A stretch of 64,000 nt of DNA from Deroplatys truncata. Lineage: Eukaryota; Arthropoda; Insecta; Mantodea; Mantidae. Shown one piece after another: positions 2,875-62,524 of this stretch (its first letter is position 1; every line of letters begins with the position of its first letter). The notes below the pieces were generated by a model. It had not been told where the DNA came from. It did no database searches and saw nothing but the letters and a program-made list of their open reading frames with translations. The stretch spans positions 62,448,001 to 62,512,000 of the forward strand of contig CM060989.1 in assembly GCA_030765065.1 (NCBI GenBank). The letters run 5' to 3'. The position numbers were made by a program, and so were the translations under genes.

Positions 2875-3315
2875 CTAACCCACTGCAGAGATGCGTGGCG
2901 TAATTTGGATGTTGAACCCTGTGGAAGGTTTGAGCACTACGCCAGATTCCAGGTTCTTCTCGATGTCCTTCATGCCGCCAACGGTCTTGACCACCCTGTA
3001 TCGCCTCAACAGAGTAGACAGCAAGGTCTTTTCCTCCATGAGACCGAATTTGTAAGCCACGCACATGCGTCGTCCAGCTCCGAAAGGTATGTAGGCGTAA
3101 GGATGCCTTCCCACCGAGTTTTCCGGAGAAAAACGCTCCGGGTCGAACCGCTCGGGATCCGGGAAGTACTTGGGATTGCGATGACTGGCGTAACTGATGA
3201 TCATAGAATAGCAACCCGCCGGTAATATGTACCCATTACCCAGGTCTGTCTCCGTCTCGATCATCCGGAATAGGTACGGTATTGGAGGGTACAGCCTCAT
3301 GGCCTCCTTTATCAC
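2875..3315 (-). CDS. P450 coding exon 3 (residues 361-506)
   Basis: It begins VIKEAMRLYPPIP, continuing PYLEQ of exon 2 to form the K-helix. It carries PDPERF, the heme loop and the C-terminal beta region, ending PRISAVG with TAG at 2875-2877. I could not place a poly(A) signal with confidence downstream. Confidence 0.93.
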   Translation of the reverse strand: MIKEAMRLYPPIPYLFRMIETETDLGNGYILPAGCYSMIISYASHRNPKYFPDPERFDPERFSPENSVGRHPYAYIPFGAGRRMCVAYKFGLMEEKTLLSTLLRRYRVVKTVGGMKDIEKNLESGVVLKPSTGFNIQITPRISAVG

Positions 3316-6300
3316 CTGCAGGCAGAGTAAGAAAATGTGTTACATTCAAATAACTTTCTCTAACCACTATCGTTTATTTTTATAGCGCTTCTGCATGCTA
3401 TTCTTACGAAAGGCTGTTTTTCTGTCTACTTCATCTTAATCGAGATAAACCTTTAGAGAAACAGTCAGGTGATTAAATGTGAGTCGCTATATTCCGGCCT
3501 TGAAATTCCATACTCTTTCTATGACATCCGAAAAACAATTGGGTAGCGATAGCACTATTAAAAATAACGAAGTATTGAACATTTTATATCAATAATAACG
3601 GATATCTTGGAAATAGCTGAATAAAACATTATTTGAAATAAACTCTTTATTTTAAAGGATCTACATTGAGGCAGTATTTTAACACTTGAATAATTTCAAT
3701 TAAATTATATAATATATAAATTCAATAACAGCCCGCCTTGAAGCAATATGTATGTAATAATTTGTAAAATGTATGTAACAGTCATTGCATATGCTTATAT
3801 TATTGTAAACATGTTCAATAATGTTATGTGATAGCATTACGTAATTTAATAATGTAAGAGCTGTGAGAATAATAAGTTTAAAGTTTCTAACAATGAGGTA
3901 ACAATGAGGTAACCTTGAGGCAATAATGAGCTTGAGAGTTTGAATGCTAGTCATGATTAGGGCAACGATAATGTAAATTTTGTGACAGTTTAAAAATAGC
4001 CAATCAACAGCCAGAAAAAGCTTTAGTAAATGCAGGTATTCTATTGGACTAGGATTAGCCAATCAGAGACTTGAAATACAGAAAGTTAAAAGTTTATACG
4101 GTTGACATAAGTTCAGTTGCTGGCAGACCTTGATAGTAACCGGATGGAAGATGCGTTCTCTAGAGAAATATTACGTATTCGTGTGAGACTTAAAATAAGT
4201 AGGTATACTCAATAGAAAAGTGCAAGTATTAAATTAAAGAATCTCACAGCTCTTGATATCAGTGTAGTGCTATTTAATTTGTGTCAACGATTAATAAAAA
4301 GAAGTGAATTTAAACTTAAAATCTGTGTAAAGCCTACATTCTTGTTGCACCACGCCCTGATTAACAGAAACGTGTCTCTAAAGAAATACTGACACAGACG
4401 AGGCAAACATAAACATAAATAGTTAAAGAAGCAGTGTAATAAGCACAGTTAATATTTATTTTTAAACTTGGAGCGTAGCAAATAAAATACATCTTCAAAT
4501 AGGCTTTACATACGTAATAGTATATAACGTAACAAACAATCTTCTTCAAATTGACATTCATACGTAGAGCTAAATAAATAAACAACATATCTACTTCAAA
4601 TTGGCTTCCCAATTGTGAGGCTAATAAACTTAAACAACGTAAACTCGAAGAACAATATCTACTTCAAATTGGCGCCCAACGTGGGGCATAAAAAATAAAC
4701 AACCATTACTTTAAATTGGTTCCCAAACGTGGAGCAGAAAAACATCTTTCTCAAATTGGCTCCAATACGTGGGACAGTTAAACTACGTAAACTAAAGCAA
4801 ACTACCCTTCCTCAACATTTTTTGTGTAGTGCAGCACAAAGTTAATGTTTCCCAATTATACAAAATTCCTTTTGAATGAAGAGGACTTTACACTATTCCT
4901 AACAAATTCAAGATATGCATTTTATTTGTCATGTAAACATCTTAAATATACGGCATTTTAATCAAAATTGTTAGAACCATTTTCAGAAAATAAAAACTCT
5001 TGCATGCAAAGCGCAGTTGAAGGTGGGGGATTTTCTGGAAAATCTTTGTATCGCATCTTTGGTAGATACCCGACTTTTACAGCTGTGCTGTTCACACACA
5101 CTTTTTTTTCTTAAAAATCTTATGTGCTACATGCAAATGACTTTATCTTCTCTCCTTTATTAGTGTGTGTAAACACACTTACGAAAGTTTAATTTTCTAT
5201 TTAAAGTCTATTTAAAAGAAACACAATTCGAATCATTAATAACGGAAAACTAAGAATTGGCTGATGCCATATAAAAAGTTATTGGAAATAAATCGTGCGA
5301 TTTGAAGAGATATAATTTATGTAGTACGTTTCCGTCAATCCGTTAACGGATTCTTTTAGGCATTTTTTTAGAAAATCAAAAATTTGAAAATGTAAAGGCT
5401 AGTTTTGGGTGGGGGGATTTTCTTCAAAATCTTTGTTGCATCCTTGGAAGGCCTTGAATTTATATACCAAGTTTCATATTTAACCCACTTTTCCTTTTAT
5501 TTGTATGCTGTTCACAGATACACACGGATCTTTTCCTAAAAATGCTTTATACCTTCTCTACTACGTATTGCATTGCACCCAAAAAATTCGATACCGAGAT
5601 TTCACCAAACATACATGTTTTGAGGTGACTGAATCCAAATAAAGCATTTTTGGAAACATGTCAGTGTGTTTTTCTGTCTGTCTATCGGTCTGTCTGTGAA
5701 CAGCATTACTCAAAAACGAAAAGTTAGATAAACACCAAACTTGGGATTTGAGTTTAGTATCTTCCAAGGATGCGATATGAATATTTTCAAGAAAATTCCC
5801 CCACCCCATACTACCATTTACATGGAACATTTTTCATAAATCTTGATTTTCTCAAAAATGCTTCTAACGACTTTGATTAAAACGTCATATATTTAAGTAA
5901 TTTTAATTACAAATAAAATGTATATCTTGAATTTTCTGGGAATGTCCCCAAAAGTTCTCTTTTTTATGAATAGCTTTTCATAACTGGTAAACTGTAAGAA
6001 AGAGAAATGTTTTCTACACAAGAAATGCAAAGCTCGTTAAAACACACAATTTATGTCATATACTTTTTTGTGGATAGAACCATTTGTGAGATATTCCTTG
6101 TTATTTGTTTGAATTTCCCAACACTTATACTTTTTCTCAGATGGGATTCGTTATTCGTTTTTTATGTCCTGGACATACAAAGAGAATGGAATACTCCACA
6201 TAGCAACCAGCTCTTAAAATATTTGATTATCGCTTAAAGCCTACCAATTCCCCTTGCATCTACAAGAAAATTAGCAATAAGATTAACATGAAGCATATGG

Positions 6301-9300
6301 AGAATAAGCGTTTGTAGAAATAGTTTGTACAAGAGTAGAGAAAGTCGTGCGATATGGAATTTTTAGGCAGAATACAATACCTTCTCTACCTGCTAGGTAC
6401 TACGTAGTAGAGAAAGTAGGAATTGAGACCTCATTTCCACACCTACGACTATGTAACCTGCGTTCTCATACTCGCAGCTTATTCTGATGCTAAACGGAGA
6501 AAGTCTTCATTGAACTTGAGTTCCTTCCACAACACTATCTAAGTGATGAAACGTGCACAAGAGCATCTTGGTCTATAGTGAAGTAGCATGCAATCAAAAA
6601 AGCATTAACCGAAACCTTACGTAACTTCATTTACATGATTTTCTGTATTCACTCTTCTACAAACTATTCTTATTCTTATATCTACTTATTGTTAATACAG
6701 ATAAACCTTCATTGCACATTTATTATAGGTATAAAAAATTACAGTACTCTAAAGCCATAACTAGACTTTTAAAAAGTGGACCGCATGCGATGGCTGTGAA
6801 ATTACATTCTCTTTGCATGCCCACAAGAAAAAACGAATAGCAACTACCCAGTTGCAAAAAGTATAAGTTTTTGAAAATTAAAACCAATAACAAGGAATAT
6901 CTCAGAAATAGTAAACGGTACAACAAAACTTGACATAAATTGTGTGCTTTAACAGAATCAACATATTTTAAGTTACAAGATTTTGTCTCTCTTAAGGTTT
7001 ACCAGTTATATAAACGTCACTCAGAATAAATAAAGATCTTACCTGTTACATTCACACGACTTTGCTTATTAGTAGGTATACTTACAAATTATTCTCACGA
7101 AAGCTTATTTTCATATATACTTTATTTTAATCCACATATACCTTTGCATAAATAGCTCCATTTCATATTATGTTATAGATAGGAAGCGAAAAGCGACAGA
7201 AAAATGTATTATAACTGGATGCTATACGCTGGCCTTAAAATTCCAAACCCTTTTCAAGTTATCGCGAGAAACAGATGAACCACGACAGGACTTTAAAAGA
7301 ATGGGTAAGTATTGATCAACTCGAACCATTAATAACGAACTCCTTTGAAATAAATTGTGTTTTAAAGATATGTACATTGTTTCGTTTTCGTCTATTGTTT
7401 AACGCTTACCAGTTATGCAAGATTATTAAAAATTCCTTGCGAACGAAGAAAACTTCAAAGGCTATTCCCACAAGATTCGAGATATGCACTTTATTTGTTA
7501 TGTAAATATCTTTAATGTGTAGTATTTTAACCAAAATCGTTAGAACAATATTTTAGAAAATCAAGATTTTCGAAAAATGTTCCATGTAAAGGGTACCTGG
7601 GATTTGGGAATTTTCTTGAAAATCTTCGTGTCGTATCCTTGGAAGATACTGAGCTGAGATACCAAGTTTGATACTTATCGAACCGTTTTCTAAAAATGCT
7701 TTTTTTATTCAGGAGGTCTCAAAATGCGTATTTCGGGTGAAATCTCGGTATCGAATATTTGAATGGAATGTAATGTATTTATGCCTACTAGGATCGTAGT
7801 AGAGAAAGTAATAAGTTTGAGTAAGAATAGTTTGTACACCCACTAATAAACGATAGAGGCTGTAGAAAGACATGTGAATGTATCACATCAGATTTTTTAA
7901 AACATGGATCACTATATGATGACTCTAGAAATTCTCTTTGCATGACCATGAAAAAAACGAATTCCGACTTTCCATTTGCAAAAAGTATAAATCTTTGAAA
8001 ACTAAAACCAATAACAAAGAATATCTCAGAAATGGTTAACGCTAAGCAAAATTGACATAAATTCTTTGCTATAAAAAGATCTACATATTTTGTGTAGTAA
8101 GATCTTTTCAATCTCTTTACCAATTAAAGAAAAGTCATTTAGAATTTAAAAAATTCTATGTAAAGGGGTGTTTCGGATGATGGGGATATTTTTGAAAATC
8201 TTCGTGTCGCATCCTTAGAAGATGTCGAAGTTCCAGTCTCGAAAACCCATCTTACTGATGGAGTTGCCTAGAGAGGGCGATGAACGACCAAACAGCATTC
8301 TAGTGTCCACTGGAAATACTCTTTCCTTTGGGCAAGCATCTACGCCATCTGTCCGGCACCGCCATACACCACGAAACCTAGAAGCATACCTGAAAGATGA
8401 GAAGGAAATGGAATGAAAGGGAAATGTTTGAAAGCAAATCGGAGTAGATGAGAAACCACACCAGCATTCGCCTACCAACCAGGGAAAACTTTGAAAAACC
8501 CCAGGTTGAGGGGGATCGAACCCGTGATCTCCCGAATGTGAGGCTCACACATTACTGGGGCGCCATCTCGCTCCGTTAAGGTGTACTTAAGTGAAATTAT
8601 GTTATAAATAAATGCTATAAAACGAAATAATACTGGTATTGACAAGCATAAAATAATCCTAAAATAAGAAAAACAGGTTGGTATTGGGGTTAATAGAAAT
8701 CTAAAAGGAAAACTTAAAAAATGACTTAAGGCATGGAGATATACCTGTTCAAGGTAGGGCATGTGCGGAAGGTCTTCGCTTGTAACATCCCTCAAGAAAT
8801 CATCGCCAAAGACAGCCTTCTGCTCCTCGAACACCTTCTCCTGTATGTCCTGGTACTCGCCTAACAACGCCAGCACATACGAGGAAGAGGTAGCCGTGGT
8901 CTCCGAGCCCGCAGCCACTATGGTTACCACTTCGTCGTGGATCTCTTCAGGAGACAGCTGTTCATCCTCAATGAGCAGATCCAGAAGCGATAGCTGCCTC
9001 TTTCGGCGTCGAAGAGCCTCAGCATCCTCAAGCTCAGTCTTCACCCTGCCTTCCTTTCTGTACTGTTCCATCTTCTCTATTACTACCTGCCAATACAACG
9101 TCTCATTGAAATTTTCGTTACATTCACATAACTTTCGCTACCTAATATCGTTTATTTTTATGTAACTTCTACAAACTATTCTTACAACACCTTATTGATT
9201 TCTCTACTACGTATAGTCAGTAAGGGAAGTATTGTATTCCACCCAAAAATTCGATATCGAGATTTCATCGGAAATGCATGTTTTGAGACCCCCTGAATCC

Positions 9301-11668
9301 AAAAAAAGCATTTTTAGAAACCTGTACGTGTGTGTGTGTCTGTGTGTGTGTGTCTGTGAACAGCATAACTCAGAAACGAACAGTCGGATAAACACCAAAC
9401 TTGGTATTTAGGTTCAGTATCTTCCAGAGATGCGACACGAACGTGTTCAAGAAAATCCCCCACCCCAGATTACCCTTTACATGGAACATTTTTCGAAAAT
9501 TTTAATTTTCTCTAAAATGACTAACGATTTTGATTAAAATATCATATGTTTAAGATATTTTCATGACAAATGAAATGTATATCTTGAATTTTCTGGGAAT
9601 ATCTCCAAAAGTATTCTTCATTGTGAGCGACTTTTGCATAACTGGTAAACAATAAGAGATAGACAAACGTTTACTGCACAAAAAATGTAGATCGCGTTAA
9701 AATACACAATTTATGTTATATGCATGTTCGTGGTTGAGAGAAGTATTTTCGAGATATTGCTTGTTATTCCCTTAAATTTTCCAATACTTATACTTTTTCT
9801 CAAATTCGTTATTAATTTTTTCTGTCCTGGTAATGCAAAGAGAATGGAATACTCCACAGAGCAACCACCTCTTAAAATATTTGACCATCGCTTAAAGCCT
9901 AGCAATTCCCCTTGCATCTACAAGAAAATTAGCAATAAGATTAACATCTCGATATCTCGATTAACATGAAGCATATGGAGAATAAACGATTGTAAAAAAA
10001 ATCTGATGTGTTACACTCGCATGACTTTCTCTCTTCTTGTACAAACCATTTTTACAAGCGTTTATTCTCCATATGCTTCATGTTACTCAAGATATCGATA
10101 TGTCAATCTTATTGCTAATTTTCTTGTAGATGCAAGGGGAACATGGTAGATTATAAGCGATAGTCAAATCTTTTAAGCGCTGGTTGCTATGTGGCGCATT
10201 CTATTCTGTTTGCATATCCAGGACATAAAAAATTGAATAACGAATTTGAGAAAAAGTATAAGTATTGGAAAATTCAAGGAAATAACAAGCAATATCTCGA
10301 AAATGGTTCACTCAACTAAAAACATGTATATGACATACATTGTGTAGTTTAACGCGATCTACATTTTTGGTTGTAGTAAAATTTTGTCTATCTCTTATGG
10401 TTGACCAGTTATGCAAAAGTCGTTCACAATAAAGAATACTTTTGGAGACATTCCCAGAAAATTCAAGATATACATTTTATTTGTCATAAAAATATCTTAA
10501 ACATATGATATTTTAATCAAAATCGTTAGAGCCATTTTTGAGAAAATTAAAATTTTCGAAAAATCTTCCATGCAAAGAGTACTCTGGGGTGGGGGTATTT
10601 TTTTGAAAACCTTCGTGTCGCATCCTTGGAAGATACTGAACCCAAATACCAAGTTTGGTGTTTATCCGACTGTTCGTTTCTGAGTTATGCTGTTCACAGA
10701 CACACACAGACAGACACACACACACACAGACACGTTTCCAAAAATGCTTTTTTGGCTTCAGGGGGTCTCAAAACATGTATTTCCGGTGAAATCTCGGTAT
10801 CGAATTTTTGGGTGGAATACAATACTTCCCCTACTTTCTATACGTAGTAGAGAAAGTAATAGTTTGTACAAGAGTTGAGAAAGTCATGTGAGTGTAACAC
10901 ATCAGATTTTTTACTCTAACTGTGACTTACTTGTCGAGCATGTCTGTGAAGGTATTCCAGCACCTTAGCCTGTTCGCGACCCAGATCTGTTAGGTTGTAG
11001 ACCCAGTCGAGTGCTAACCAAGGACGCATGAATCGCTCACCAATTAGTTCCACAGACCGCAGTACATTCCTGACGTACACCCCATCATCATCCAGTTGTG
11101 CATTCACTTTAGTTCCCATGGCCGTTTCACAAATTACGTCTAGCGTGAAGAGACTGATCAGCGGGTACACGTTGAAAGTTCTTCCATCGGACACCTTGGA
11201 AAGTTTCTGCGAGAGAATGCCACTATTCTTAGCAAAGTTGTCCACAAACTGGTCCAGGACGTTGGTATGGAATGTTGAGGCAATAATCTTGCGGTGTACC
11301 CTCCAGACTTCGCCGTCGGACATGAGCAGACCGTTCCGGAAGAAGGGTCGACCCAATTTGGTGACGTAGCCTGTACGCTTGATGAAGATCTTGTTGCCCA
11401 AAATGCGTTCCAGAGCAACAGGATCCGCAACGAGCACAAAAAGATCGGTGCCCATCCAAACCCGCGCTATGGGGCCATGAGCCTGCAGGATGCCCAACAG
11501 CCTTTGGAAGAACTGCACCAGGTCGCAGCCGGCGAAGGTGAGGAGATTGCCGAGTAACGGGACAGCACCAGAAGGTCCGGGTAGACGTGCCGCTAGCTCG
11601 TAGAGGCGTCTGCGTGTCCACCAATAGGTGGCAAGGGCCAGGAACAGTATCCAGATCAGCCACCACAT
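2875..11668 (-). CDS. Cytochrome P450, CYP4 clan; gene join(10931-11668, 8745-9086, 2875-3315)
   Basis: This is a heme monooxygenase, expected to be anchored in the endoplasmic reticulum and to take electrons from P450 reductase. Family members oxidise fatty acids, hormones or xenobiotics; the substrate cannot be read from sequence. The three exons give 246 + 114 + 146 = 506 residues, a normal full length. Motifs in order: N-terminal hydrophobic anchor (3-17), LPGP hinge (29-32), C-helix WRVHR (122-126), ETAMG (181-185), I-helix AGSETT (305-310), K-helix EAMR (364-367), PERF twice (414-417, 419-422) and heme loop FGAGRRMCVA with ligand Cys445. All splice junctions are phase 0 with GT/AG ends, and no stop or frameshift was seen, so it looks functional. 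CYP4 clan rests on the ETAMG region and overall layout; the exact family needs a tree. Residue 447 is Ala where the signature usually has Gly. Confidence 0.93.
3330..3666 (+). repeat. HLR, old subfamily C, left part
   Basis: The left end region of an old HLR (GTTACATTCA..ACTTTCTCTA). It is cut at GATCTACAT by LTR-1a and resumes at 4815. Confidence 0.7.
3667..4814 (+). mobile_element. LTR-1a: solo LTR with array of primer-binding-site-like units
   Basis: This 1,148-bp unit starts TGAGGCAGTATTTTAACA and ends CTTCCTCA, with the 4-bp duplication ACAT at 3663-3666 and 4815-4818. It lies inside an old HLR whose two halves (GATCTACATT / TTTTGTGTAGTG) join correctly once it is removed. TG..CA ends, terminal TGAGG/CCTCA and a 4-bp duplication indicate a Ty3/gypsy-style solo LTR. 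CCAAT-like motifs (AGCCAATCA) and AATAAA-type sites (AATTAATAAAAAG near 4290-4305) are present. The last ~320 bp is the unit array described separately. Confidence 0.88.
4493..4814 (+). repeat. Six-unit PBS-like array at the 3' end of LTR-1a
   Basis: Six diverged units share the pattern (C)TTCA-AATTGGCnCCC-AACGTGGGGC and then a 20-45 nt AT-rich spacer. They start near 4493, 4544, 4594, 4662, 4709 and 4749. The best one (4670-4687) reads TGGCGCCCAACGTGGGGC, the 18-mer complementary to the 3' end of tRNA-Lys (established retroviral PBS). A PBS normally follows an LTR once; here it lies inside the LTR several times. Confidence 0.8.
4815..5116 (+). repeat. HLR, old subfamily C, right continuation after LTR-1a
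   Basis: It resumes with ACATTTTTTGTGTAGTG and the GAAGAGGACTTT and GGTGGGGGATTTTC landmarks. It ends at the CACACAC tract near 5100 without its right terminus. Confidence 0.65.
5117..6413 (+). repeat. HLR, old copy interrupted by a reverse HLR
   Basis: The left end is AAAAATCTTATGTGC at 5117. The body runs to CTAAAAATGCTT near 5547 and resumes at about 6356 with GAATTTTTAGG.., ending GTAGTAGAGAAAGT. The insert between is a separate HLR copy. Confidence 0.65.
5548..6355 (-). mobile_element. HLR nested in an older HLR
   Basis: It runs CCTTCTCTACTACG.. to ..GAGTAGAGAAAGTCGTG with the B-type middle segment (AATACTCCACATAGCAACC). The outermost bases at its right end are lost. Confidence 0.7.
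6414..6619. other. Intron sequence, unassigned
   Basis: About 200 bp inside P450 intron 2 with no similarity I can place. Confidence 0.4.
6620..7035 (+). repeat. HLR, old diverged fragment
   Basis: Internal landmarks are present (CTCTTTGCATGCCCA, AATATCTCAGAAAT, TTTACCAGTTATATAA); both ends are degraded. Confidence 0.55.
7040..7812 (+). repeat. HLR, old subfamily C
   Basis: It runs from CTGTTACATTCACACGACTTTG to TCGTAGTAGAGAAAGT at about 7809. The microsatellite section is deleted. Confidence 0.7.
7813..8225. repeat. Two abutting HLR fragments in opposite orientation
   Basis: 7813-7898 is the reverse left end (..TGTATCACATCAGATTTTTT). 7900-8225 is a forward internal piece (TCTCTTTGCATGACCA.. 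to CGTGTCGCATCCTTAGAAG). Confidence 0.6.
8218..8580 (-). mobile_element. tRNA-headed SINE
   Basis: On the minus strand the head reads GAGCGAGATGGCGCCCCAGT (A-box-like) and then ACGGGTTCGATCCCC (near-perfect B box). A body follows with the module TTTTCCCTGGTTGGTAGGCG that recurs in other SINEs here. It lies about 165 bp from exon 2 of the P450, in the gene's own orientation. Confidence 0.75.
8745..9086 (-). CDS. P450 coding exon 2 (residues 247-360)
   Basis: The exon runs VVIEKMEQYRKEG.. to ..LPHMPYLEQ. It holds the basic 'RRRKRQLSLLDLLIEDEQLS' stretch before the I-helix and the oxygen-activating AGSETT. The Thr pair is present, but Glu replaces the commoner Asp/His-Asp pattern. The acceptor ends ..TTGGCAG; the donor after CAG is GTATAT, a weaker site. 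Confidence 0.93.
9197..9996 (-). mobile_element. HLR, subfamily B, first part (P450 intron 1)
   Basis: It runs from the right terminus TCTCTACTACGTATAG to ..AAACGATTGTAAAAA, where a forward HLR copy interrupts it. The last ~50 bp reappears at 10858-10911. Confidence 0.8.
9997..10857 (+). mobile_element. HLR, subfamily B, nested in the reverse copy
   Basis: AAAAATCTGATGTGTTACAC opens it and GTAGTAGAGAAAGT closes it at 10857. The outer copy's GATTGTAAAAA|TAGTTTGTACAAG is split inside its A-run. Both termini are therefore intact and datable. Confidence 0.85.
10858..10911 (-). mobile_element. HLR, remainder of the outer copy
   Basis: It reads ATAGTTTGTACAAGAGTTG.. to ..ACATCAGATTTTTT, ending 14 bp before the P450 exon 1 donor. 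Confidence 0.8.
10931..11668 (-). CDS. P450 coding exon 1 (residues 1-246)
   Basis: The start ATG at 11666-11668 opens MWWLIWILFLALATYWWTRR, a typical P450 signal anchor with basic residues behind it, so I prefer it over the in-frame extension reaching 11986. That extension is pure HLR repeat. The exon ends ..HRHARQ, followed by the donor GTAAGT (10925-10930). A possible 3' splice site (TTCAG, AG at 11676-11677) lies 7 nt upstream of the ATG, so an upstream non-coding exon is plausible. Confidence 0.92.
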
Positions 11669-11698
11669 CCTGGACCTGAAGAGAGTAAACACATTTTT

Positions 11699-12541
11699 AC
11701 TTTCTCTACTACGTATAGTAAGTAAGGGAAGTATTGTATTCCACCCAAAAATTCGATACCGAGATTTCACCGGAAATACATGTTTTGAGACCCCCTGAAT
11801 ACATAAAAAGCATTTTTCGAAACATCTCCGTGTGTGTGAGTCTGTGTGGCTGTGAACAGCATAACTCAGAAACGAACAGTCGGATAAAGACCAAATTTGG
11901 TATTTAGGTTCAGTATCTTCCAGAGATGCGACACGAAGGTTTTTAAGAAAATCCCCTAACTCCAGATTACCCTTTACATGGAACATTTTTCGAAAATTTT
12001 AATTTTCTCAAAAATGGCTCTAAAGATTTTGATTAAAATATCATATGTTTAAGGTATTTTCATGACAATAAAAATGTATATCTTGAATTTTCCGGGAATG
12101 TCTCCAAAAGTATTCTTCATTTTGAACGACTTTTGCATAACTGGTAAACCATAAGAGATAGACAAAATTTTACTACACAAAAAATGTAGATCGCGTTAAA
12201 ATATACAATTTATATCATATACATTTTTGTTGTTGAGTGGACCATTTTGGAGATATTGCTTGTTATTCCCTTAAATTTTCCAATACTTACACTTTTTCTC
12301 AAATGGGAATTCGTTATTCATTTTTTTGGTCCTGGTAATGCAAAGAGAATGGAATACTACATATAGCAACCAGCTCTTAAAATATTTGACTATAGCTTAA
12401 AGCCTACCAATTCCCCTTGCACCTACAAGGAATTTAGCAACAAGATTAACATCTCGATTAACATGATGCATATGGAGAATAAGCGTTTGTAAAAATAGTT
12501 TGTACAAGAGTAGAGAAATTCATGTGAATCTAACACATCAT
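11699..12541 (-). mobile_element. HLR, subfamily B, immediately upstream of the P450 start
   Basis: It starts ACTTTCTCTACTACG 31 bp upstream of the P450 ATG and ends near ..CTAACACATCA. Its reverse strand is open in frame with exon 1 for 106 codons, which is why a longer ORF appears to start at 11986. The extension is repeat sequence found elsewhere without the P450, so it is not part of the protein. Confidence 0.85.
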
Positions 12542-17709: not shown

Positions 17710-18556
17710 TGAAGAAAGTTATGGCTTTTTACATAGATTTCCCCAAGTTTAAAAATATTTAACTTTGTAGTTTTACTGTTTCTTTAAATATTTAATATTT
17801 ATGTTTGCCTCGGCTAGGTCAGTATTTATTTATAGAGACATGGATGTCTTGGCAGGGCGTGATGCGACAAGAATGTAGGCTTACACGATTTTAAGTTTTA
17901 ATTCACTCATTTTTATTAATGCTTGACACAAATTAAATGGTACTTCACTGATATCGAGAACTGTGAGATTCTTTTATTTAATACTTGCACTTTTTAACAC
18001 GTATACTATTTTCGTCTCACACGAATACGTAAAAAAATTCTCGCGTCTGGTTATAAGCACTGTCTAGAAGCAACACGTCTGGTTATGATCACTGTTTGGA
18101 GGCAAGTAAATTGATTTCAACCGTCTAAACTTGTAAATTTCTGTATTTCAAGTCTCTGATTGGCTATTTTATTTTTATTCCAATAGAATACCTGCATTTA
18201 GCTAAAGCTTTTTCTGGTTGTTGATTGGCTATTTTCATAAACTGTCACTAAAATCACATTAAAGCTTCCAAGAATCACAAGTAACATTTAAACTCTCAAA
18301 CTCATTATTGCCTCAAGGTTACCTCAAGGTTAGCAACTTTTAACTTATTATTCTCACAGATCCTACATTATTAAATTACGTAATATATTCACATAAGATT
18401 ATTGAACATGTTTACAATAATACAAGCATATACAGTGACTGTTACATACATTTTACAAATTATTACATACACATATTGCTTCAAGGCGGGCTGTTATTGA
18501 ATTTACTTATTATATAATTTGACTGAAATCATTTAAGTGTTAAAAATACTGCCTCA
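17710..18556 (-). mobile_element. LTR-1b: solo LTR, shortest copy
   Basis: 847 bp. In LTR orientation it starts TGAGGCAGTATTTTTAACA and ends CATAACTTTCTTCA. The flanks are ACAT (17706-17709) and ATAT (18557-18560), a 4-bp duplication with one mismatch. It lacks the clear PBS-like units of other copies; after AACTTGGGG it has only ~30 bp before the CTTCTTCA end. Confidence 0.82.
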
Positions 18557-30103: not shown

Positions 30104-31143
30104 TGATGCTGTTTTTAACATTTAAATGATTTCAGTCTAATTATATAATATATAAATTCAATAACAGCCCGCCTTAAACCAATATTTGTGTGTAACAATA
30201 TATAAAAAGTGTATATTACAGTCATTGTATATGTTTATATTATTGTATCCATGTGTAATAATGTTATGTGAGTATATTACGTAATTTAATAATGTAGGAG
30301 CTGTGAGAATAATAAGTTAAAAGTTGCTAACAATGAGGTAACAATGAGGTAACCTTGAGTCAATAATGAATAAGGAAGTTTAACAGTACTACTTGTGATT
30401 CTTGGAGTAACAATAATGTAAGTTTAGTGACAGTTTATAAAATAGCCAATCAACAACCAGAAAAAGCTCTAGTTAAATGAAGGTATTCTATTGGAGTAGG
30501 ATTAGCCAATCAGAAACTGAAATACAGTAAAATTTACAAATCCAGAAGACAGTTGCCTGCAGACAGCGTTACTAAACAGACGCAAAAAGTGTCCTCAAGA
30601 AATTTAATACGTATTCGTGTGAGACGAAAAATAAGTTTACTTGTTAAAAAGTGTAATTAATTAATAAAAAGAATCCCACAGCTCTCTATATCAGTGAAGT
30701 GTTATTTAAATCGTATCAAGTATTAATAAAAGGAGTGAAGTAAAATTATAATATGTGTAAGTCTACATTCTTGTCGCATCACAACCCTACCAAGAGAAAC
30801 GTGTCCCTAACAAAAATACTGATGTAGCCGAGGCAAACATAAATATTTAAAGAAACAGTTTAATTACAAAGTTAATATTTTTTTAACTTGGGGCAAAGGC
30901 CACCTGAAACTACATTTGGGCCGAAGGATAACGGAAACTGTTTACTATACGTGCGGTTGCAACTACTACAAGTTCGGTTCCCCAACAGTTGAACTATAAT
31001 ACAACTCCTTCAATACACCTTCTTCAAATTGACGCCCAAAGCGTGGTGTTGCACATAACAATACAAACCGACTTTCCATACGTAGAAGCAAAACCATCTT
31101 TCTCAAATTGGCGTCCATACGTGGAGCTAACAAAACATCTACA
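30104..31143 (+). mobile_element. LTR-1c: solo LTR with PBS-like array
   Basis: 1,040 bp, from TGATGCTGTTTTTAACATTT to AAAACATCTACA, with a perfect duplication AGTT (30100-30103 and 31144-31147). It has CCAAT-like boxes, an AATTAATAAAAAG signal near 30658 and four to five unit cores from 30966 (AAGTTCGGTTCCCCAACAG, AAATTGACGCCCAAAGCGTG, AAATTGGCGTCCATACGTGG). No coding sequence. Confidence 0.86.
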
Positions 31144-36301: not shown

Positions 36302-36531
36302 TGATGCAGTAATTTGTATCACAAATTACTTAAATGTAAATAATGATTGTAATATGAATATGCATTTTTATGTGACATTGATTTGAGATGTTTATTGATT
36401 GTAATTATTGTTGAAAAGAAGTTTATACCGCCTTACTGAAACTGACAATAATAGCGTGCAATAATGCAGCGAGGGGGTGAGCTGTTTATCATTATTGGAA
36501 ACGAGGAAGTTACGTAATGTTGGCGCGTTTA

Positions 36532-36549
36532 GAATATTCTGGAACGTTT
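36532..36549 (+). promoter_or_regulatory. Heat-shock-element-like motif in LTR-2
   Basis: GAATATTCTGGAACGTTT holds four alternating pentamer cores: GAA, TTC, GAA, TTT. It matches the nGAAnnTTCn heat-shock element with one final mismatch, about 120-137 bp upstream of the TATA box. Confidence 0.55.
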
Positions 36550-36668
36550 CCCTAGAGCATATGTATTCATAATTTTCATTGGATATTAAAAATAGACGCT
36601 AATGTTGGCGCGTTTTATTAGCCAATTGCAGTTCAGTTATAATCTTTAGGCATATCTGGGTGAAGGAG

Positions 36669-36676
36669 TATAAAAA
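36669..36676 (+). promoter_or_regulatory. TATA box of LTR-2
   Basis: TATAAAAA, with transcription expected to begin near 36700. Confidence 0.6.
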
Positions 36677-36955
36677 GAGTAGGTTAGAGGTAGACCCCGC
36701 CAGTTCATCAAAATTCTTTGTACACTACACGTCGCATTCCCATCAGTTCGTCGAAAGTATTTGTACGGCACATTTCGGATATCAATTTGCAGGTTACGCG
36801 TAACAGAGTTATGAAAATTCTCAAGTATGGTAAAGTTAATTATACAAAAGGTTGAAGTACGTGGATTAAAAGTGATTAGTAAGAAGTTGTTATAACAGTT
36901 TCAGTTTGGCGAGTGTTAAGATCAATGTATAAATGTGATAGTTAACGTGTTCGAC

Positions 36956-36961
36956 AATAAA
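36956..36961 (+). terminator. Polyadenylation signal of LTR-2
   Basis: AATAAA, 287 bp downstream of the TATA box. This defines an R region if the LTR start is near 36700. Confidence 0.6.
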
Positions 36962-37129
36962 AGTGTAAAACAAATTTCTTCATCAGTGTTATCTTTGGAT
37001 AAAAGATTCCTTTCCGTTTACACAACCTGTATTAAGAGAAGTGCTTAACCCAAAAGATCAGAGCTAGCCGGAGGACAGTAAACAAAAAAAATTAAATCAA
37101 ATAACAGTCGCATTCTTTCAAACAAACAC

Positions 37130-37321
37130 TAATACTACCGCAAATTGCTAACACCAGATGGAGCTAACAAACCTAACAAATGAATCACGTCACAAGATGG
37201 CTTCCACGCGTGAAGTAAACACAAATACACAAACATTATAGGTAATACACCAGCAAATTGGCGCCCAACGTGGGGCTACACAATAATGTTAAATAAATAA
37301 CATTACAAGTATACTACTGCA
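37130..37321 (+). repeat. PBS-like unit array at the 3' end of LTR-2
   Basis: The units begin CTACCGCA|AATTGCTAACACC (about 37134), then CACAAGATGGCTTCCACGCG (37191), then CCAGCA|AATTGGCGCCCAACG (37250). The LTR ends CTACTGCA, the same signature that precedes each unit. Confidence 0.75.
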
Positions 37322-39711: not shown

Positions 39712-40607
39712 CGAGGGCTGATCAACAAAGACTGAGACTGATTTTTTTCACAGATATTTATTACTCCAATTCAATGTTTACAATATCTTTTTCAAAGTAG
39801 TCCTCTCCTACTTGAATGCACTTTTTATAGCGTTTCTGCCAGTCCTTGAGCACGTGCTGCAGACCATTCTTTGTCGGGTCCTTGAGAATCGCCTCACTTT
39901 TCTTGCACACTGATTCAGAGTTCTAAATTCGAATACCCCTAAGCTTTGCCTTTAGTGATGGGAATAAAAAAAAAGTCACAGGGTGCAAGATCGGGGCTAT
40001 AAGGTGGATGTGGTACACAGGTAATGTTGAATCGAGCCAGAAACTGCATGACTTGATTTGCGACGTGAGGCCGTGTATTGTCATGATGAAGTCGCCACCC
40101 AGTCCGAGAAAGCTCTGGTCGTTTCTTTGTAATGTGCTTCCTCAGTGTAGCCAATACTGACTTGTAGTATGCTGCTGTAACAGTAGTGTGAGGGGGAACT
40201 GTATGCAGGTAAATCATTCCATTACAGTCAAAAAATGTGATCACCATCGCTTTCCCTGCAGATGGAACAACTTTTGCCTTTTTTGATGTTGGAGAACCTG
40301 GCGATTTCCACACTGTGCTGGCTTGTTTTTTTTCAGGATCATAATGATGCAGCCATGACTCATCACCGGTGATAATCGATTTAAAAAATGCATCCCCTCC
40401 ATCAGCAAAAAGACGCAGTTGGTATGCGAAATGCACGTAGGGTCTACAAAATAGAGCATTACTACCAACCTACCAATACGAGAGTGCTGCCGCCTACCAA
40501 CATTATACATAAAAACCCGCTCTTTTCAAATATTTATGTTACAGATACGAGTCTATCACAGAAGCTACAGGAAAAAATCAGTCTCAGTCTTTGTTGATCA
40601 GCCCTCG
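39712..40607 (-). mobile_element. mariner element, internally deleted
   Basis: Inverted repeats CGAGGGCTGATCAACAAAGA at both ends continue for ~35 nt, flanked by TA (39710-39711 and 40608-40609). The element is 896 bp against ~1.3 kb for complete mariners. The minus strand encodes the C-terminal half of the transposase; the N-terminal DNA-binding domain is deleted. Confidence 0.9.
39780..40436 (-). pseudogene. mariner transposase, C-terminal catalytic half
   Basis: ITGDESWLHHYDPEKKQ carries the first catalytic Asp and RLHHDNTRPHVA the second. PYSPDLAPCDFFF carries the third, exactly 34 residues after the second, the mariner DD34D signature. A frameshift after FFIPITKGKA puts the true C-terminus (NGLQHVLKDWQKRYKKCIQ) in another frame. 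It cannot make an active enzyme. Confidence 0.88.
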
Positions 40608-43014: not shown

Positions 43015-43740
43015 TATTAGAAACATCTGTGTTACATCACATGAACTTTCTCTACCCTCTATCGTTTATCAGTAGGTATACAAATTATTCTTACGAAATA
43101 TTATTTTTCTATATAACACATTTTAACCGAGTTAAACCTTTGCAGAAACAGCTAACTACATTACACAGCGACAGTCAAATGTTTAAGAACTGGACGCTGT
43201 ATTCTGACCTTAAAACTCCATACTGTTTGCATACAATCGCGAGAAACAACTGAATGTTGGCAGAACTTAAAATGAATGGCTAAGTATGAACAATTCGAAC
43301 CATTAATAACGCATATCTCGGAAATGGCTGATGCCACAAAAAAGTTATTTGAAATAAACTCTGTGTTTTAAAGAGTTCTATGTTTCTTGTGTAGTAAGTT
43401 GTCGTCTATTGCTTAAAGTTTACCAGTTATACAAGATTATATAAAATTCCTTCCGAATGAAGAGGACTTTAAAAGCTGTTCTCAGAAAATTCAAGATATA
43501 CATTTTATTTGTCATGTAAATATCTTTCATATACGCTATTTTAATCAAATCGTTACAACGATGTTTTTGAAAATCGACAAATTTTCCATATAAAGATAGT
43601 TTGGGGTGGGGATTTTCTTGAAAATCTTTGTATCGTATTTTGGAAGTTACTTAACTTAAATACCAAGTTTAGTGTTGATCTGACACTTCGTTTTTTTAGT
43701 TATGTTGTTCACAGACACAAATACAGATCCGTTTTACCGG
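43015..43740 (+). repeat. HLR, old subfamily C
   Basis: It runs from ATCTGTGTTACATCACATGA to the ACACAAATACAGATCC tract; the right terminus is missing. Confidence 0.72.
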
Positions 43741-47160: not shown

Positions 47161-48969
47161 TGAAGTAGATTGTTGCTTCACGTATGGAAAGCCAATTTGA
47201 AGTAGGAGTTTTATTGTAGTTCAACTGTTGGGGAGCCGAACTTGAAGTAGTTGCAACCGCACGTATGGTAAAAAGTTTCCGGTAGCCTTTGCCCAAATGT
47301 TTAAAAATATTATTAACTTTGTAATTTTTTACTGTTTCTTTAAATATTATATATTTATGTTTGCCTCGGCTACGTCAGTATTTATATTTTTTTTAGAGAC
47401 ATGAATGTCTTAGCAGGGGGTGGTGCAACTTAAGAATGTAGGCTTACACAGATTATAATTTTATTTCACTCCATTTATTAATGCTTGACACGATTTAAAT
47501 AACAGTTCACTGATATAGAGAGAGCTGCGAGATTTTTTTTATTAATTACTTGCACTTTTTAACACTAAATTATTTTCGTCTCACACTGAATACGTATTAA
47601 ATTTCTCGAGGACGCATCTCGCGTCCAATTAGGAACACTGTCTACAAGCAACTGACTTGATTTCCACCACCTAAATTTGTAAATTTCTATATTTCAGTTC
47701 TGATTGGCTAATTCTACTCCAATAGAATACTTTCATTTAACTAACCTTTTTTCTGGTTGTTGATGGGCTATTTTATGAACTCTCACAAAAATTACATTAT
47801 TGCTTCCAAGAATTACAAGCAGTATTGTTAAATTTTCAAATTCATTATTGCCTCAAGGTTACCTCATTGTTACCTCATTGTTAGCAACTTTTAACCTATT
47901 ATTCTCACAGCTCCTACATTATTAAATTACGTAATATATTTACATAACATTATTGAACATGTATACACGAATATAAACACATACAATGACTATAATATAC
48001 ACTTTTTACTTTCTCTACTACGTATAGTAAGTAGGGGAAGTATTGTATTCCACCCAAAAATTCGATACCGAGATTTCACCGGAAATACATGTTTTGAGAC
48101 CCTCTGAATCCAAAAAAAGCATTTTTGGAAACATGTCCGCGCGTGTGTGTGTGTGTGTGTGTCTGTGTGTCTGAGAACACCAAAACTCAGAAACGAACAG
48201 TCGGATAAACACCAAACTTGGTATTTAGGTTCAGTGTCTTCCAGAGATGCGACACGAAGGTTTTCAAGAAAATCTCCCCACCCCAGACTACCCTTTACAT
48301 GGAATATTTTTCGAAAATTTTAAGTTTCTCAAAAATGTCTAACGATTTTGATTAAAATATCATATGTTTAAGATATAGTCATATGAAATAAAATGTATAT
48401 CTCGAATTTTCTGGGAATGTCTCCAAAACTATTCTTCATTGTGAACGACTTTTGCATAACTGGCAAACCGTAAGAGATAGACAAACTTTCACTACACAAA
48501 ACATGTAGATCGCATTAAAATACACAATTTATGTCATATACATTTTTGTTGTTGAGTGAACCGTTTTTGAGATATTGCTTGTTATTCCCTTAAATTTTCC
48601 AATACTTACACTTTTTCTCAAATTCGTTATTCATTTTTTTATGTCCTGGACATGCAAAGAGAATAGAATGCGCCACATAGCAACCAGCGCTTAAAAGATT
48701 TGACTATCGCTTAAAACCTAACTTATTCCCATTGCATCTACAAGAAAATTAGCAATAAGATTGACATCTCAATATCTCGATAAACATGAAGCATATGGAA
48801 GATAAGCGTTTGTAAAAATAGTTTGTCAAGAGTAGAGAAAGTAATGTGAGTGTAACACATCGGATTTTTATATCTTGTTACATACACATATTGCTTTAAG
48901 GAGGGCTGTTATTGAATTTATATTATATAATTAGACTGAAATTATTTAAATGTTAAAAATACTACCTCA
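47161..48969 (-). mobile_element. LTR-1d: solo LTR split by an HLR
   Basis: In LTR orientation it starts TGAGGTAGTATTTTTAACA and ends ACAATCTACTTCA. The perfect duplication is TTAT (47157-47160 and 48970-48973). Without the HLR at 48008-48869 it is ~947 bp. The 3' part has two clear units (ACTTCAAGTTCGGCTCCCC and ACTTCAAATTGGCTTTCC). The LTR then stops exactly at the next CTACTTCA. Confidence 0.87.
48008..48869 (-). mobile_element. HLR, subfamily B, nested in LTR-1d
   Basis: It runs ACTTTCTCTACTACG to ACACATCGGATTTTT. The host reads ATACACTTTTT|ATATCTTG, as seen uninterrupted in LTR-1c and LTR-1e. The insertion site is therefore a T5 run. Confidence 0.9.
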
Positions 48970-57251: not shown

Positions 57252-58299
57252 TGAGATGTAGTTTTGTTGTAGGAGTTGTATTGTTATTTGCCCCACGTAT
57301 GGAAGCCAATTTGAAGAAGGTGGTTTGTTACGTTATTTGCACCAAGCTTTGGGCGTCAATTTGAAGTAGTTTGTATTGAAGGAGTTGTATTATATTTCAA
57401 CTGTTGGGGAGCCGAACTTGTAGTAGTTGCAACCGCACGTATAGTACCCGCTTTCCGGTAGCCTTCGCCCCAAATGTACTTTCAGGTGGCCTTTGCCCCA
57501 AGTTTAAAATAAAATACATTAACTATGTAATTTGACTGTTTCTTTAAATATTATATATTTATGTTTGCCTCGGCTGCGTCAGTATTATTGTTAGAGACAC
57601 GTTTCTCTTAGCAGAGTTGTGATGCGACGAGAATGTAGGTTTACACATATTATAATTTTACTTCACGCCTTTTATTAATGCTTGATACGATTAAAATAAC
57701 ACTTCACTGATATAGAGAGCTGCAACATTCTTTTTATTAATTAATTACACTTTTTAACACGTAAACTTATTTTTCGTCTCACACGAATACAGATTAAATC
57801 TCTCGAGGAGGCACAAGCAACGCATCCAGTTATGAGCACTGTCTGCAGGCAACTGAATTGATTTAAATCGTCTAAACTTGTAAATGTCTGTATTTCAAGT
57901 CTCTGATGGCTACTCCTAATCCAAAAAGTTACCTTCATTTAAATAAAGTTTTTTCTGGTTGTTGATTGGCTATTTTATAAACTGTCACTAAAATTACATT
58001 AATGTTGTTCCAATAATGACTAGCAACATTACTAAACTCTCAAACTCATTATTGCATCAAGGTTACCTCATTGTTACCCCACTGTTAGCAACCTTTAACC
58101 TATTATTCTCACAGCTCTTACATGATTAAATTACGTAACACATTCACATAACATTATTGAACATGGATACAATAATATAAACATTTAAAATGACTGTAAT
58201 ATATTGTTACATACATATATTGCTTTAAGGCGGGCTGTTATTGAATTTATATATTATATAATTGACTGAAATCATTTAAGTGTTAAAAATACTGGCTCA
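57252..58299 (-). mobile_element. LTR-1f: solo LTR with PBS-like array
   Basis: 1,048 bp. In LTR orientation it starts TGAGCCAGTATTTTTAACA and ends AAAACTACATCTCA. The perfect duplication is ACTT (57248-57251 and 58300-58303). Unit cores include AAGTTCGGCTCCCCAACAG, AAATTGACGCCCAAAGC and AAATTGGCTTCCATACGTGG (57252-57430). Confidence 0.88.
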
Positions 58300-60459: not shown

Positions 60460-60580
60460 TGCGGCGATACCATGAGAGGACGCTGGGCGCCAATTTGCGG
60501 CGATACCATGGGAGAACGCTGGGCGCCAATTTGCGGCGATACCATGGGAGGTGCTGTGAGTCAATTTGGTGGCACGGGAT
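60460..60580 (-). repeat. 36-bp tandem PBS-like units in LTR-3
   Basis: Read on the minus strand, two near-identical units GCCGCA|AATTGGCGCCCAGCG.. start at 60531 and 60495. A degenerate CACCA|AATTGACTCACAG precedes them, and the terminal GCCGCA ends the LTR. The core TGGCGCCCA is shared with the LTR-1 and LTR-2 units; the 3' part of the site (GCGTTCTCC) differs, so another primer may pair there. Confidence 0.75.
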
Positions 60581-61215
60581 TTGCAGGGACGGTCCCGGGT
60601 TTGATGCTAGCTCAGGGACTCGCTTGGATCATGGATCTTGGATTTAGGATTGGTGATTAATACAACTGATTCATTTTCCTGCCCGTTTACTTCCCGTCAC
60701 CGTTTTAAAATCGAGTTCTGATATTACCTCGCCACACGCACACGCGCGCGCGCAACTCTTTACTACTGTGTTTCATACCATCGCCCCAATTCACCGGCAC
60801 TCACCTTTGTTTTCAGAACGACTTCCAAGGAAATTCCACGAATAAGTGTTTACTAAACTCTCCTGTTTCTTTATTTCAAATGTCCTATCTCCCGATTTCA
60901 CTATTACCTGATTTCTACCCTCTTTCTTATTGGATGCCTTGGCTATGACAGCACTGACCCTTTTCTACACATCTGATTTTCAGGCGGCTTAAGGGTACAC
61001 TAACAAAGCGTATTCTGCTCTCACTCGGATACAATTGAGGGAAAAACCAACCCCGTTTCCGGCCTGCTGTTGGCACTGTCTTTTCAACCCATATTCACCT
61101 TTACAGTAATAGTCATTTCCCAATCTTATTTAATAATACAATTCCTACTGTTATTAATATTTATTTTCCATGTGGTTATAACTTTATATTTATCTACGCA
61201 GAACGTTCTGTCTCA
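60460..61215 (-). mobile_element. LTR-3: solo LTR of a third family, with tandem 36-bp PBS-like units
   Basis: 756 bp. In LTR orientation it starts TGAGACAGAACG and ends CATGGTATCGCCGCA. The perfect duplication, read on the plus strand, is AACT (60456-60459 and 61216-61219). AATAAA on the minus strand lies at 60870-60875. No coding sequence. The 3' end is the 36-bp array. Confidence 0.8.
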
Positions 61216-61290: not shown

Positions 61291-62524
61291 CACTACGTGA
61301 TCAAAAGTATCCGGACACCTGGCTGAAAATGTCGTACAAGTTCGTGGCGGCCTCCATCGGTAATGCTGGAAGTCAACATGATGTTGGCCTACCCTTAGCC
61401 TTGATGACAGCGTTCACTCTCGCAGGCACACCTTCAATCAGGTGTTGGAAGGTTTCTTGGGGAATGGCAGTCCATTCTTCACTGAGTGCGGAACTGAGGA
61501 GAGTTATCGGTGAGGCCTGGCACGAAGTCGGCGTTCCAAAACATCCCAAAGGTTTTTATAGGATTCAAGTCAGAACACTGTGCAGGCCAGTCCATTACTG
61601 GGATGTTATTGTCGTATAACCACTCCGCCACGGCCTGTGCAATATGAACAGGTGCTCGATCGTGTTGAAAGATGCAATCGCCCTCCCCGAATTGCTGTTC
61701 AACAGTGGGAAGCAAGAAGGTGCTTAAAATATCAATGTAGGTCTGCGCTGTGATCGTGCCACGCAAAACAACAAGGGGTGAAACCCCCTCCAGGAAAAAC
61801 ACGACCACACCATAACACTACTACCTCCGAGTTTCACTGTTGCCACTACTCACGCTGGCAGGTGACATTCACCGGGCATTCGCCATACCCACACCCTGCT
61901 ATCGGATCGCCACATTGTGTACCGTGATTCGTCACTCCACACAACGTTTTGCCACATTTCAATCGTGTAATGTTGACGCTCCTTACACCAAGCGAGGCGT
62001 CGTTTGGAATTTTCCTGCGTGATGTGTGGCTTATGAGCAGCCGCTCGACCATGGAATCCAAGGTTCTCACCTCACGCCTAACTGTCATAGTAATTGCAGT
62101 GGATACTGATGCAGTTTGGAATTCCTGTGTGATGGTCTGGATAGATGTCTGCCTATTCTCTTTACGACCCTCTTCAAATGTCGGCGGTCTCTGTCATTCA
62201 ACAAACGAGGTCGGCCTGTACGCTTTTGTGCTGTACATGTCTCTTCACGTTTCCACTTCACTATCACATCAGAAACAGTGGACCTAGGGATGTTTGGGAG
62301 TGTGGAAATCTCGCGTACAGACTTCTGACACAAGTGACACCCAATCACCTGACCACGTTCGAAGTCCATGAGTTCCACTGAGCGTCCCATTCTGCCGTTT
62401 CACGATGTCTAATGACTACTGAGGTCGAGAATAATGAGTACCAGGCAGTAGGTGGCAGCACAATGCACTTAAGATGAAAAACGTATGCTTGTGGGGGTGT
62501 CCGGATACTTTTGATCACATAGTG
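61291..62524 (-). mobile_element. Tc1-like transposon
   Basis: Inverted repeats CACTACGTGATCAAAAGTAT.. (28 of 29 nt identical) with TA on both sides (61289-61290 and 62525-62526). 1,234 bp, close to the full length of short Tc1-like elements. Confidence 0.9.
61479..62390 (-). pseudogene. Tc1-like transposase, frameshifted
   Basis: The N-terminus MGRSVELMDFERGQVIGCHL with helix-turn-helix (REISTLPNIPRSTVSDVIVK) and the GRPR hook is intact at 62390-62085. The catalytic end at 61808-61479 has FQHDRAPVHIAQAV and WPAQCSDLNPI. Then one base is missing, so the expected ENLWDVLERRLR is read as KTFGMFW. This loses the third catalytic residue. Confidence 0.85.

What the first reader, a model, noticed from the sequence alone, without database searches (positions are those of the whole stretch)
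4493..4814. LTR-1: primer-binding-site-like units repeated inside the LTR, with the LTR ending at a unit boundary
Six solo LTRs of one family, bounded by TG..CA and 4-bp duplications, end in a variable number of units of the form CTTCA|AATTGGCGCCCAACGTGGGGC plus spacer. The best copy of the core is the exact 18-nt tRNA-Lys-type PBS. In 1a, 1b, 1d and 1e the LTR terminus is CTTCA or CCTCA, the bases that precede a PBS core. A model that explains this is a leader with several tandem PBSs, where priming from a downstream one makes U5 longer and traps the upstream PBSs inside the new LTR. LTR length (847 to 1,148 bp) would then record which site was used. I know of no description of this as a regular family property.
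Basis: partly seen in the sequence, partly recalled or inferred. Interest (0 to 1): 0.88.

Follow-up and report, generated by a model that had tools for sequence, protein, structure and literature searches.

The report
Retrotransposons with sliding LTR edges
In this genome many LTR retrotransposons carry the sequence that matches the primer tRNA several times in a row, and their terminal repeats end just before different copies in different elements, likely because copying can start at any of them, so that the edge of the repeat would move from one generation to the next and leave a trail of older sites inside it.

Summary
The six LTR-1 copies carry PBS-like units, and their ends coincide with unit boundaries. 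LTR-2 in the same window has an exact PBS inside it. The window's own genome was searchable: 9,167 sites within 2 mismatches of the 18-mer, reversed control 20; 299 pair matches of a 16-nt PBS core spaced 30-91 nt, control 0. In 21 complete elements (10 of them picked because they hold an exact pair) the LTR ends CA, and TGG of a PBS follows after 3 nt (20) or 4 nt (1). The border falls at different units. Exact PBSs: 4 of 37 units inside the LTR, 19 of 21 at the border, 10 of 21 in the leader; in the 11 elements not picked for a pair 1 of 22, 9 of 11 and 2 of 9. Some spacer modules lie inside the LTR in one element and outside in another. Units match tRNA-Lys worse the further upstream they lie. 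Most likely mechanism: priming from one of several tandem PBSs sets the LTR end. No description appeared in the (capped) paper listings.

The parts
3667..4814 (+). solo LTR-1a, 1,148 bp, TG..CA, TSD ACAT; lies between two exons of a P450 gene that runs on the other strand
4498..4814 (+). array of PBS-like units at the 3' end of LTR-1a; the LTR ends at a unit boundary (CCTCA)
4670..4687 (+). exact 18-nt match to the 3' end of tRNA-Lys (with CCA), trapped inside LTR-1a
   Evidence: a host tRNA-Lys(CTT) gene with this 3' end
17710..18556 (-). solo LTR-1b, 847 bp, shortest, ends CTTCA, TSD ATAT/ATGT
30104..31143 (+). solo LTR-1c, 1,040 bp, TSD AGTT
47161..48969 (-). solo LTR-1d with a nested repeat of about 0.84 kb, TSD ATAA
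53344..54317 (+). solo LTR-1e, 974 bp, TSD TCTG; ends where 1c and 1f go on with another unit
57252..58299 (-). solo LTR-1f, 1,048 bp, TSD AAGT
36302..37321 (+). solo LTR-2, 1,020 bp, TSD GTAT, same architecture
37259..37276 (+). exact 18-nt PBS trapped inside LTR-2, preceded by CAGCA AAT, one unit before the LTR end
60460..61215 (-). candidate LTR-3, 756 bp, TSD AGTT; single copy seen, not verified by a genome search (tool busy)
60460..60551 (-). 36-bp tandem units with CGCA AATTGGCGCCC inside candidate LTR-3, which ends at a unit boundary
43300..43480 (+). copy of the repeat into which LTR-1a inserted; shows the empty site

Best explanation
Tandem copies of a match to tRNA-Lys lie across the border between LTR and leader in most of the complete elements examined, the LTR ends 3 or 4 nt before one of them in 21 of 21, and the copy from which reverse transcription is primed likely decides where the new LTR ends. 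Shown: the position of the border relative to the units, its different place in different elements, some of the same modules on either side of it, exact PBSs inside LTRs and in leaders, and the poorer match of units further upstream. Inferred: tRNA-Lys anneals to one unit of the array; minus-strand DNA starts there, so U5 runs up to that unit and everything upstream, older PBSs included, becomes LTR in both copies. The used PBS is rewritten from the tRNA during plus-strand synthesis and so tends to be exact; trapped ones are no longer rewritten, drift, and become a layered record of earlier borders. A downstream unit makes the LTR longer, an upstream one makes it shorter. New units likely arise by template switching or misaligned strand transfer within the array; L015/L016, whose 3' LTR has an extra PBS plus 13 nt of leader plus a repeated unit, looks like such an event.
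For: 21 complete elements, 19 of them with a matching 4-bp target duplication: terminal CA, then TGG after 3 nt (20) or 4 nt (1). Clear units inside the LTR: 0-6 per LTR. Exact 18-mers: LTR 4/37, border 19/21, leader 10/21; Fisher LTR vs border 1.6e-9, LTR vs leader 0.003, border vs leader 0.006. In the 11 elements not picked for holding an exact pair: 1/22, 9/11, 2/9 (LTR vs border 1.3e-5); without the four whose border is less sure: 4/31, 15/17, 8/15. L034/L040 and L025/L026: exact PBS trapped at the same place in both LTRs, border at a later unit. L112: one exact PBS in the 5' LTR, one at the border, one in the leader. Of 39 spacers in 13 elements, clustered at 75% identity, four of the six clusters with more than one member hold spacers from inside the LTR and from outside; e.g. 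one module is inside in L018 and L025 and outside in L023 and L032. 299 pair matches of the 16-nt core spaced 30-91 nt, reversed-pattern control 0. Solo LTRs with exact PBS trapped and perfect duplication: window 1a and LTR-2, L098, L029, L038 (two), L122 (two), L124 (two). Gradient: of unit pairs within one LTR the downstream one matches better in 120, worse in 11 (0 of 2,000 permutations as high); with only clear units 33 against 8, p 0.001. A host tRNA-Lys(CTT) gene has this 3' end. RT domain in one internal piece of the long element L034/L040. Experimental precedent for initiation from two PBSs in one RNA: Voronin and Pathak 2004, seen only as a title in the reference list of PMC3902901.
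Against: Nobody has seen priming here; all is inferred from genomic copies. Loci were chosen because they hold at least one exact 18-mer, and 10 of the 21 because they hold an exact pair, so exact units in LTRs and leaders are over-counted; in the 11 others LTR and leader do not differ (1/22 and 2/9, p 0.19). The border of the 5' LTR was assigned by inference in L015 and L104; in L037 and L039 the 5' LTR start is replaced or cut and no duplication was established; L110's is TTTT, weak, and its LTRs align at 90.6% over the part compared. The border PBS is not exact in 2 of 21 (L023 one mismatch, L025 a 2-nt bulge), so rewriting by the tRNA is not complete. Unit number differs between LTRs in L015/L016 and module content in L110/L111, so recombination within arrays also acts. 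L100/L101 has a single PBS and no clear unit in its LTR, L039 none in its LTR. Copies share descent, so permutation and Fisher values overstate the number of independent events. For LTR-1 proper no complete element with several exact PBSs was fetched.
Confidence: 0.87

Rival explanations
1. Ordinary repeat growth at the 3' end of U5: units multiply by slippage or unequal exchange in the genome, the PBS is always the same one, and CTTCA recurs only because the integrase needs that end.
For: Units do vary and shuffle; the two LTRs of L110/L111 carry different modules; L015/L016 are unequal.
Against: In 21 of 21 complete elements a PBS follows the border, while comparable or exact PBS units lie inside the LTR or further down the leader in all but one of them (L100); some modules are on either side of the border in different elements; equal unit number in both LTRs in 20 of 21, which exchange after insertion would not give.
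Confidence: 0.06
2. The array has another job (for example to catch or titrate tRNA-Lys or 3' tRNA fragments, or to shape the leader RNA), and the moving border is a side effect of keeping many tRNA-matching units.
For: Many PBS sites in the genome and hundreds of exact tandem pairs.
Against: Units inside the LTR are mostly not exact (4 of 37) and match worse upstream, which argues against selection on the trapped ones.
Confidence: 0.15
3. The end of the LTR is chosen at integration: the cDNA always has the same long end and integrase cuts back to one of several internal CA ends.
For: Units are mostly preceded by CA (29 of 37 inside the LTR, 19 of 21 in the leader).
Against: Trimming would change only the 3' LTR; the 5' LTR would still run up to the outermost PBS. 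In the complete elements both LTRs end at the same unit (20 of 21), in 16 of 21 with further PBS-like units after the 5' LTR.
Confidence: 0.02

Closest known systems
Osvaldo lineage of Ty3/gypsy (Metaviridae) in insects, as described for Culex in PMC3286476 (passages incl. part of Table 1, and section 13 read)
   Same: LTRs of 997-2,055 bp, PBS always complementary to tRNA-Lys, 4-bp target duplications in most; in three of them a conserved stretch of about 30 nt across the LTR/PBS border
   Different: In the parts read no tandem PBS-like units inside LTRs are mentioned; one element (cqgypsy_1) has a tRNA dimer at the PBS
Retroviral vectors built with two primer-binding sites (Voronin and Pathak 2004; title seen in a reference list, content recalled)
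   Same: Two PBSs in one RNA, both able to start reverse transcription
   Different: Engineered constructs; here the arrangement is natural, multiple and inherited
Drosophila rover 5' UTR tandem repeat (PMC12992720, passages read)
   Same: Whole-unit expansion near the LTR in an insect Ty3/gypsy-type element
   Different: 151-bp unit in the 5' UTR; the passages read mention neither a PBS in it nor a change of the LTR border

Membership tests
LTR retrotransposon | pair of direct terminal repeats TG..CA with target duplication | tested here: met
   21 complete elements, 19 with matching 4-bp duplication; the TG start was not seen in L037 and L039
LTR retrotransposon | PBS complementary to the 3' end of a host tRNA beside the 5' LTR | tested here: met
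   host tRNA-Lys(CTT) gene
LTR retrotransposon | reverse transcriptase domain inside | tested here: met
   RVT_1, E 1.2e-25, in one internal piece of the long element L034/L040; not looked for in the others, of which many are short and presumably non-autonomous
Ty3/gypsy, Osvaldo lineage | LTR about 1-2 kb, tRNA-Lys PBS, 4-bp duplication | tested here: met
   (LTR 970-1,333 bp); criteria from PMC3286476
Ty3/gypsy, Osvaldo lineage | place in a tree of RT, RNase H and integrase | not tested
   no tree was built
LTR-1 of the window as member of the tandem-PBS group | LTR ends at unit boundaries; PBS units trapped | tested here: met
   15 copies (12 perfect duplications, 2 with one mismatch, 1 not matching); L098 with exact PBS trapped
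LTR-1 of the window as member of the tandem-PBS group | complete element with PBS right after the LTR | tested here: inconclusive
   only L015/L016, which starts like LTR-1; its two LTRs are unequal

The most novel reading that the evidence does not exclude
In this group the LTR is not a fixed sequence with a fixed end: a row of tRNA-Lys sites lets the border be set anew at each round of copying, the tRNA rewrites the site in use, and the discarded sites pile up inside U5 as dated layers, so that an LTR is both a working part and a record of the priming history of its lineage. Modules of spacer plus PBS behave as cassettes that are duplicated, lost and exchanged between elements.
Probability: 0.7. 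Interest if true: 0.9.

Novelty: new variant of a known kind. Interest (0 to 1): 0.85.

Why it matters
Textbook LTR elements have one PBS that fixes where the LTR ends. Here one genome holds hundreds of natural tandem pairs of exact PBS cores, which makes the choice of primer site, the rewriting of the PBS by the tRNA, and strand-transfer errors readable from genomic copies. It also matters for annotation: LTR length and LTR ends cannot be taken as fixed within such families, finders that rely on a PBS may misplace borders, and dating by LTR alignment must allow for array exchange.

Tried and rejected
Chance: rejected (0 in 100 shuffles; 9,167 against 20 for the reversed pattern). Matches of the 18-mer in viral and prokaryote collections (1 and 12 stretches) lie in DNA of 58-74% GC without AAT before TGG; taken as chance and dropped. 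Another tRNA as target of the variant units (CATACG forms) was considered; by my own reasoning, not by a call, their length does not fit an acceptor stem; left. Fate of the 43 stretches with an exact 18-mer (8, 20, 6, 9): 21 gave a complete element, 4 are second LTRs of those (L016, L019, L026, L040), L021 overlaps L020, 5 are solo LTRs with a settled duplication (L029, L038, L098, L122, L124), 5 are single or rearranged LTRs not settled (L024, L028, L030, L033, L041), 6 gave no usable second LTR (L014, L022, L035, L114, L120, L126), and L096 does not look like this group. Ten of the 20 places (L030-L039) and all 9 were picked because they hold exact pairs. Two of the 10 fetched LTR-1 tails (L080, L082) were dropped before the count because the end was unclear or interrupted; L088 was kept although its duplication does not match. 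The genome search with LTR-3 and the one with LTR-2 did not complete. Literature: the listings showed no account of tandem PBSs as a family property; the lists (40 of 1,574; 20 of 131) were capped and mostly about the buffer PBS, and the library lacks most subscription papers.

Full report
What was checked. The window holds six LTR-1 copies with TG..CA ends and 4-bp duplications, perfect in five and with one mismatch in 1b. A relative of the flanking repeat gives the empty site of 1a. Beyond a shared body (pairwise identity 81.5-88.0%) the copies differ at the 3' end by units of the form CA + AATTGG-type core + A-rich spacer. In 1a five units score 7 or more, shuffled tails at most 4 in 20 trials; one is the exact 18-mer at 4670-4687. 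1e ends exactly where 1c and 1f go on with another unit; 1d lacks a whole unit that c, e and f have; 1b stops about where 1a has its first boundary. A second family, LTR-2 (36302-37321, TSD GTAT), has the exact PBS inside and ends one unit later. A third candidate (60460-61215, minus strand) ends after 36-bp units with AATTGGCGCCC; it rests on one copy.

The genome. The window's own genome (4.29 Gb, 818 contigs) answered a pattern search after several busy replies: 4,493 forward and 4,674 reverse matches to the 18-mer with up to 2 mismatches, against 4 and 16 for the reversed pattern. Pairs of an exact 16-nt PBS core spaced 30-60 nt: 257; 61-91 nt: 42, some of which are next-but-one units of longer rows; control 0 in both. 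In 601 bases of a tRNA cluster ARAGORN calls two Lys(CTT), one Lys(TTT) and one Asn(GTT) gene; one of the Lys(CTT) genes ends in exactly the sequence that the PBS matches.

Complete elements. Around 43 stretches with an exact 18-mer (8, 20, 6, 9) I looked for a second LTR, mostly in separately fetched downstream pieces. 21 complete elements resulted, 19 with a matching 4-bp duplication; 10 of the 21 had been picked because they hold an exact pair. In all 21 the LTR ends in CA and TGG of a PBS follows, after 3 nt in 20 and 4 nt in one. In L015 and L104 the two LTRs are not collinear to the end and the 5' border was assigned by its match to the end of the 3' LTR. LTRs whose two ends are known are 970-1,333 bp (where L027 was given a wrong start; it is 1,085 bp). 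Counting units with a score of 7 or more, from 420 nt before the border to 260 nt after it: inside the LTR 37, exact 4; at the border 21, exact 19; in the leader 21, exact 10. In the 11 elements not picked for a pair: 1 of 22, 9 of 11, 2 of 9; in the 10 picked: 3 of 15, 10 of 10, 8 of 12; without L015, L104, L037 and L039: 4 of 31, 15 of 17, 8 of 15. So the excess of exact PBSs at the border over the LTR holds in each set, while the difference between LTR and leader is not seen in the 11 unpicked ones (p 0.19). Clear units inside one LTR number 0 to 6.

The border slides. L034/L040 (99.5% identical LTRs) has an exact PBS 131 nt before the end of both LTRs and another exact one at the border; L025/L026 (99.7%), not picked for a pair, has one trapped 133 nt before the end of both, its border PBS having a 2-nt bulge. 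L112 has one exact in the 5' LTR, one at the border, one in the leader; its 3' LTR copy of the trapped unit has one substitution. Ten elements have a further exact PBS in the leader beyond the border. Spacers of the first 13 elements (39 in all) were clustered at 75% identity by single linkage: of six clusters with more than one member, four hold members both inside the LTR and outside; the clearest is a module of about 65-70 nt, inside in L018 and L025 and outside in L023 and L032. Solo LTRs with exact PBSs trapped and perfect duplications: 1a, LTR-2, L098, L029, L038, L122, L124, the last three with two each.

Layers. In 37 LTRs, the downstream unit of a pair within one LTR matches the tRNA better in 120 cases and worse in 11 (31 LTRs with two or more units of score 3 or more); with clear units only, 33 and 8 (20 LTRs). 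Copies within a family share their older units by descent, so these are not independent. The trend fits outward growth with decay of sites no longer in use; it does not say how fast.

LTR-1 itself. The genome search with the LTR-1e body scored 40 copies, itself included, of 5,983 candidates. Of 10 tails fetched, 8 could be read to an end; with the 6 of the window and L098, 15 copies: duplication perfect in 12, one mismatch in 2, not matching in 1. Terminal 9-mers, sought with up to 2 mismatches inside other copies, were followed by a PBS-like start in 212 of 439 cases, against 66 of 3,990 interior positions; for 1c and 1f alone it was 4 of 27 and 1 of 13. The order of unit types differs between copies (by eye). 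None of the 8 tails holds an exact PBS; 1a and L098 do.

Results against. Unit number differs in L015/L016: the 3' LTR runs past the border of the 5' LTR with an exact PBS, 13 nt of leader and a repeat of the preceding unit, and its end has the matching duplication TACA. I read this as a template switch during minus-strand synthesis; gene exchange between copies would also do. L110/L111 have equal numbers but different modules. L023 and L025 have an inexact border PBS. L100/L101 has one PBS only. Loci were chosen for an exact 18-mer, and 10 for a pair.

What is known. In mosquitoes the Osvaldo lineage has LTRs of this length, tRNA-Lys PBS and mostly 4-bp duplications (PMC3286476, passages and section 13); lineage membership by tree was not tested. 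Vectors with two PBSs were studied by Voronin and Pathak (title in the reference list of PMC3902901; the paper itself is not held). Eight searches of the paper library, seen as listings of which two were capped, showed no description of tandem PBSs inside LTRs.

Verdict.

Noticed in passing
window 2875-3339, 8472-9137, 10916-11998 (-): Pieces of a cytochrome P450 gene in exon order on the minus strand; LTR-1a lies between two of them, in the other orientation.
   Followed up: partly
G000:C9:191136768-191189776 and perhaps beyond; L128: Large tandem cluster of tRNA genes with a 144-bp period (Lys-CTT, Lys-TTT, Asn-GTT in 601 bases); 93 of the 100 listed matches (127 in all) to one tRNA-Lys 3' end pattern lie in it.
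   Followed up: partly
L041; L065: PBS arrays followed closely by an inverted copy of the same kind of array, like a palindrome at the end of an LTR.
   Followed up: no
L109; L108: The PBS match to tRNA-Lys is prolonged well past 18 nt, in L108 apparently into the anticodon arm, as if more of the tRNA had been copied (by eye).
   Followed up: no
L018, L019, L055: Three near-identical LTRs in tandem with copies of the inner part between them.
   Followed up: no
L014, L017, L018, L025, L027, L037: The last unit before the leader proper has two extra nt in an otherwise good match (TGGCACCCAGAACGTGGGGC and similar), recurrent in different elements.
   Followed up: no
window 39939-40469 and 61479-61817 (-): Transposase pieces with DDE domains.
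   Followed up: no
window about 48007-48855: A dispersed repeat of about 0.84 kb nested in LTR-1d; similar open frames recur through the window (by eye).
   Followed up: no
L100/L101: An LTR family with a single exact PBS and no clear units near its LTR end, LTRs 100% identical over 1,145 bp: the ordinary arrangement beside the tandem one.
   Followed up: partly
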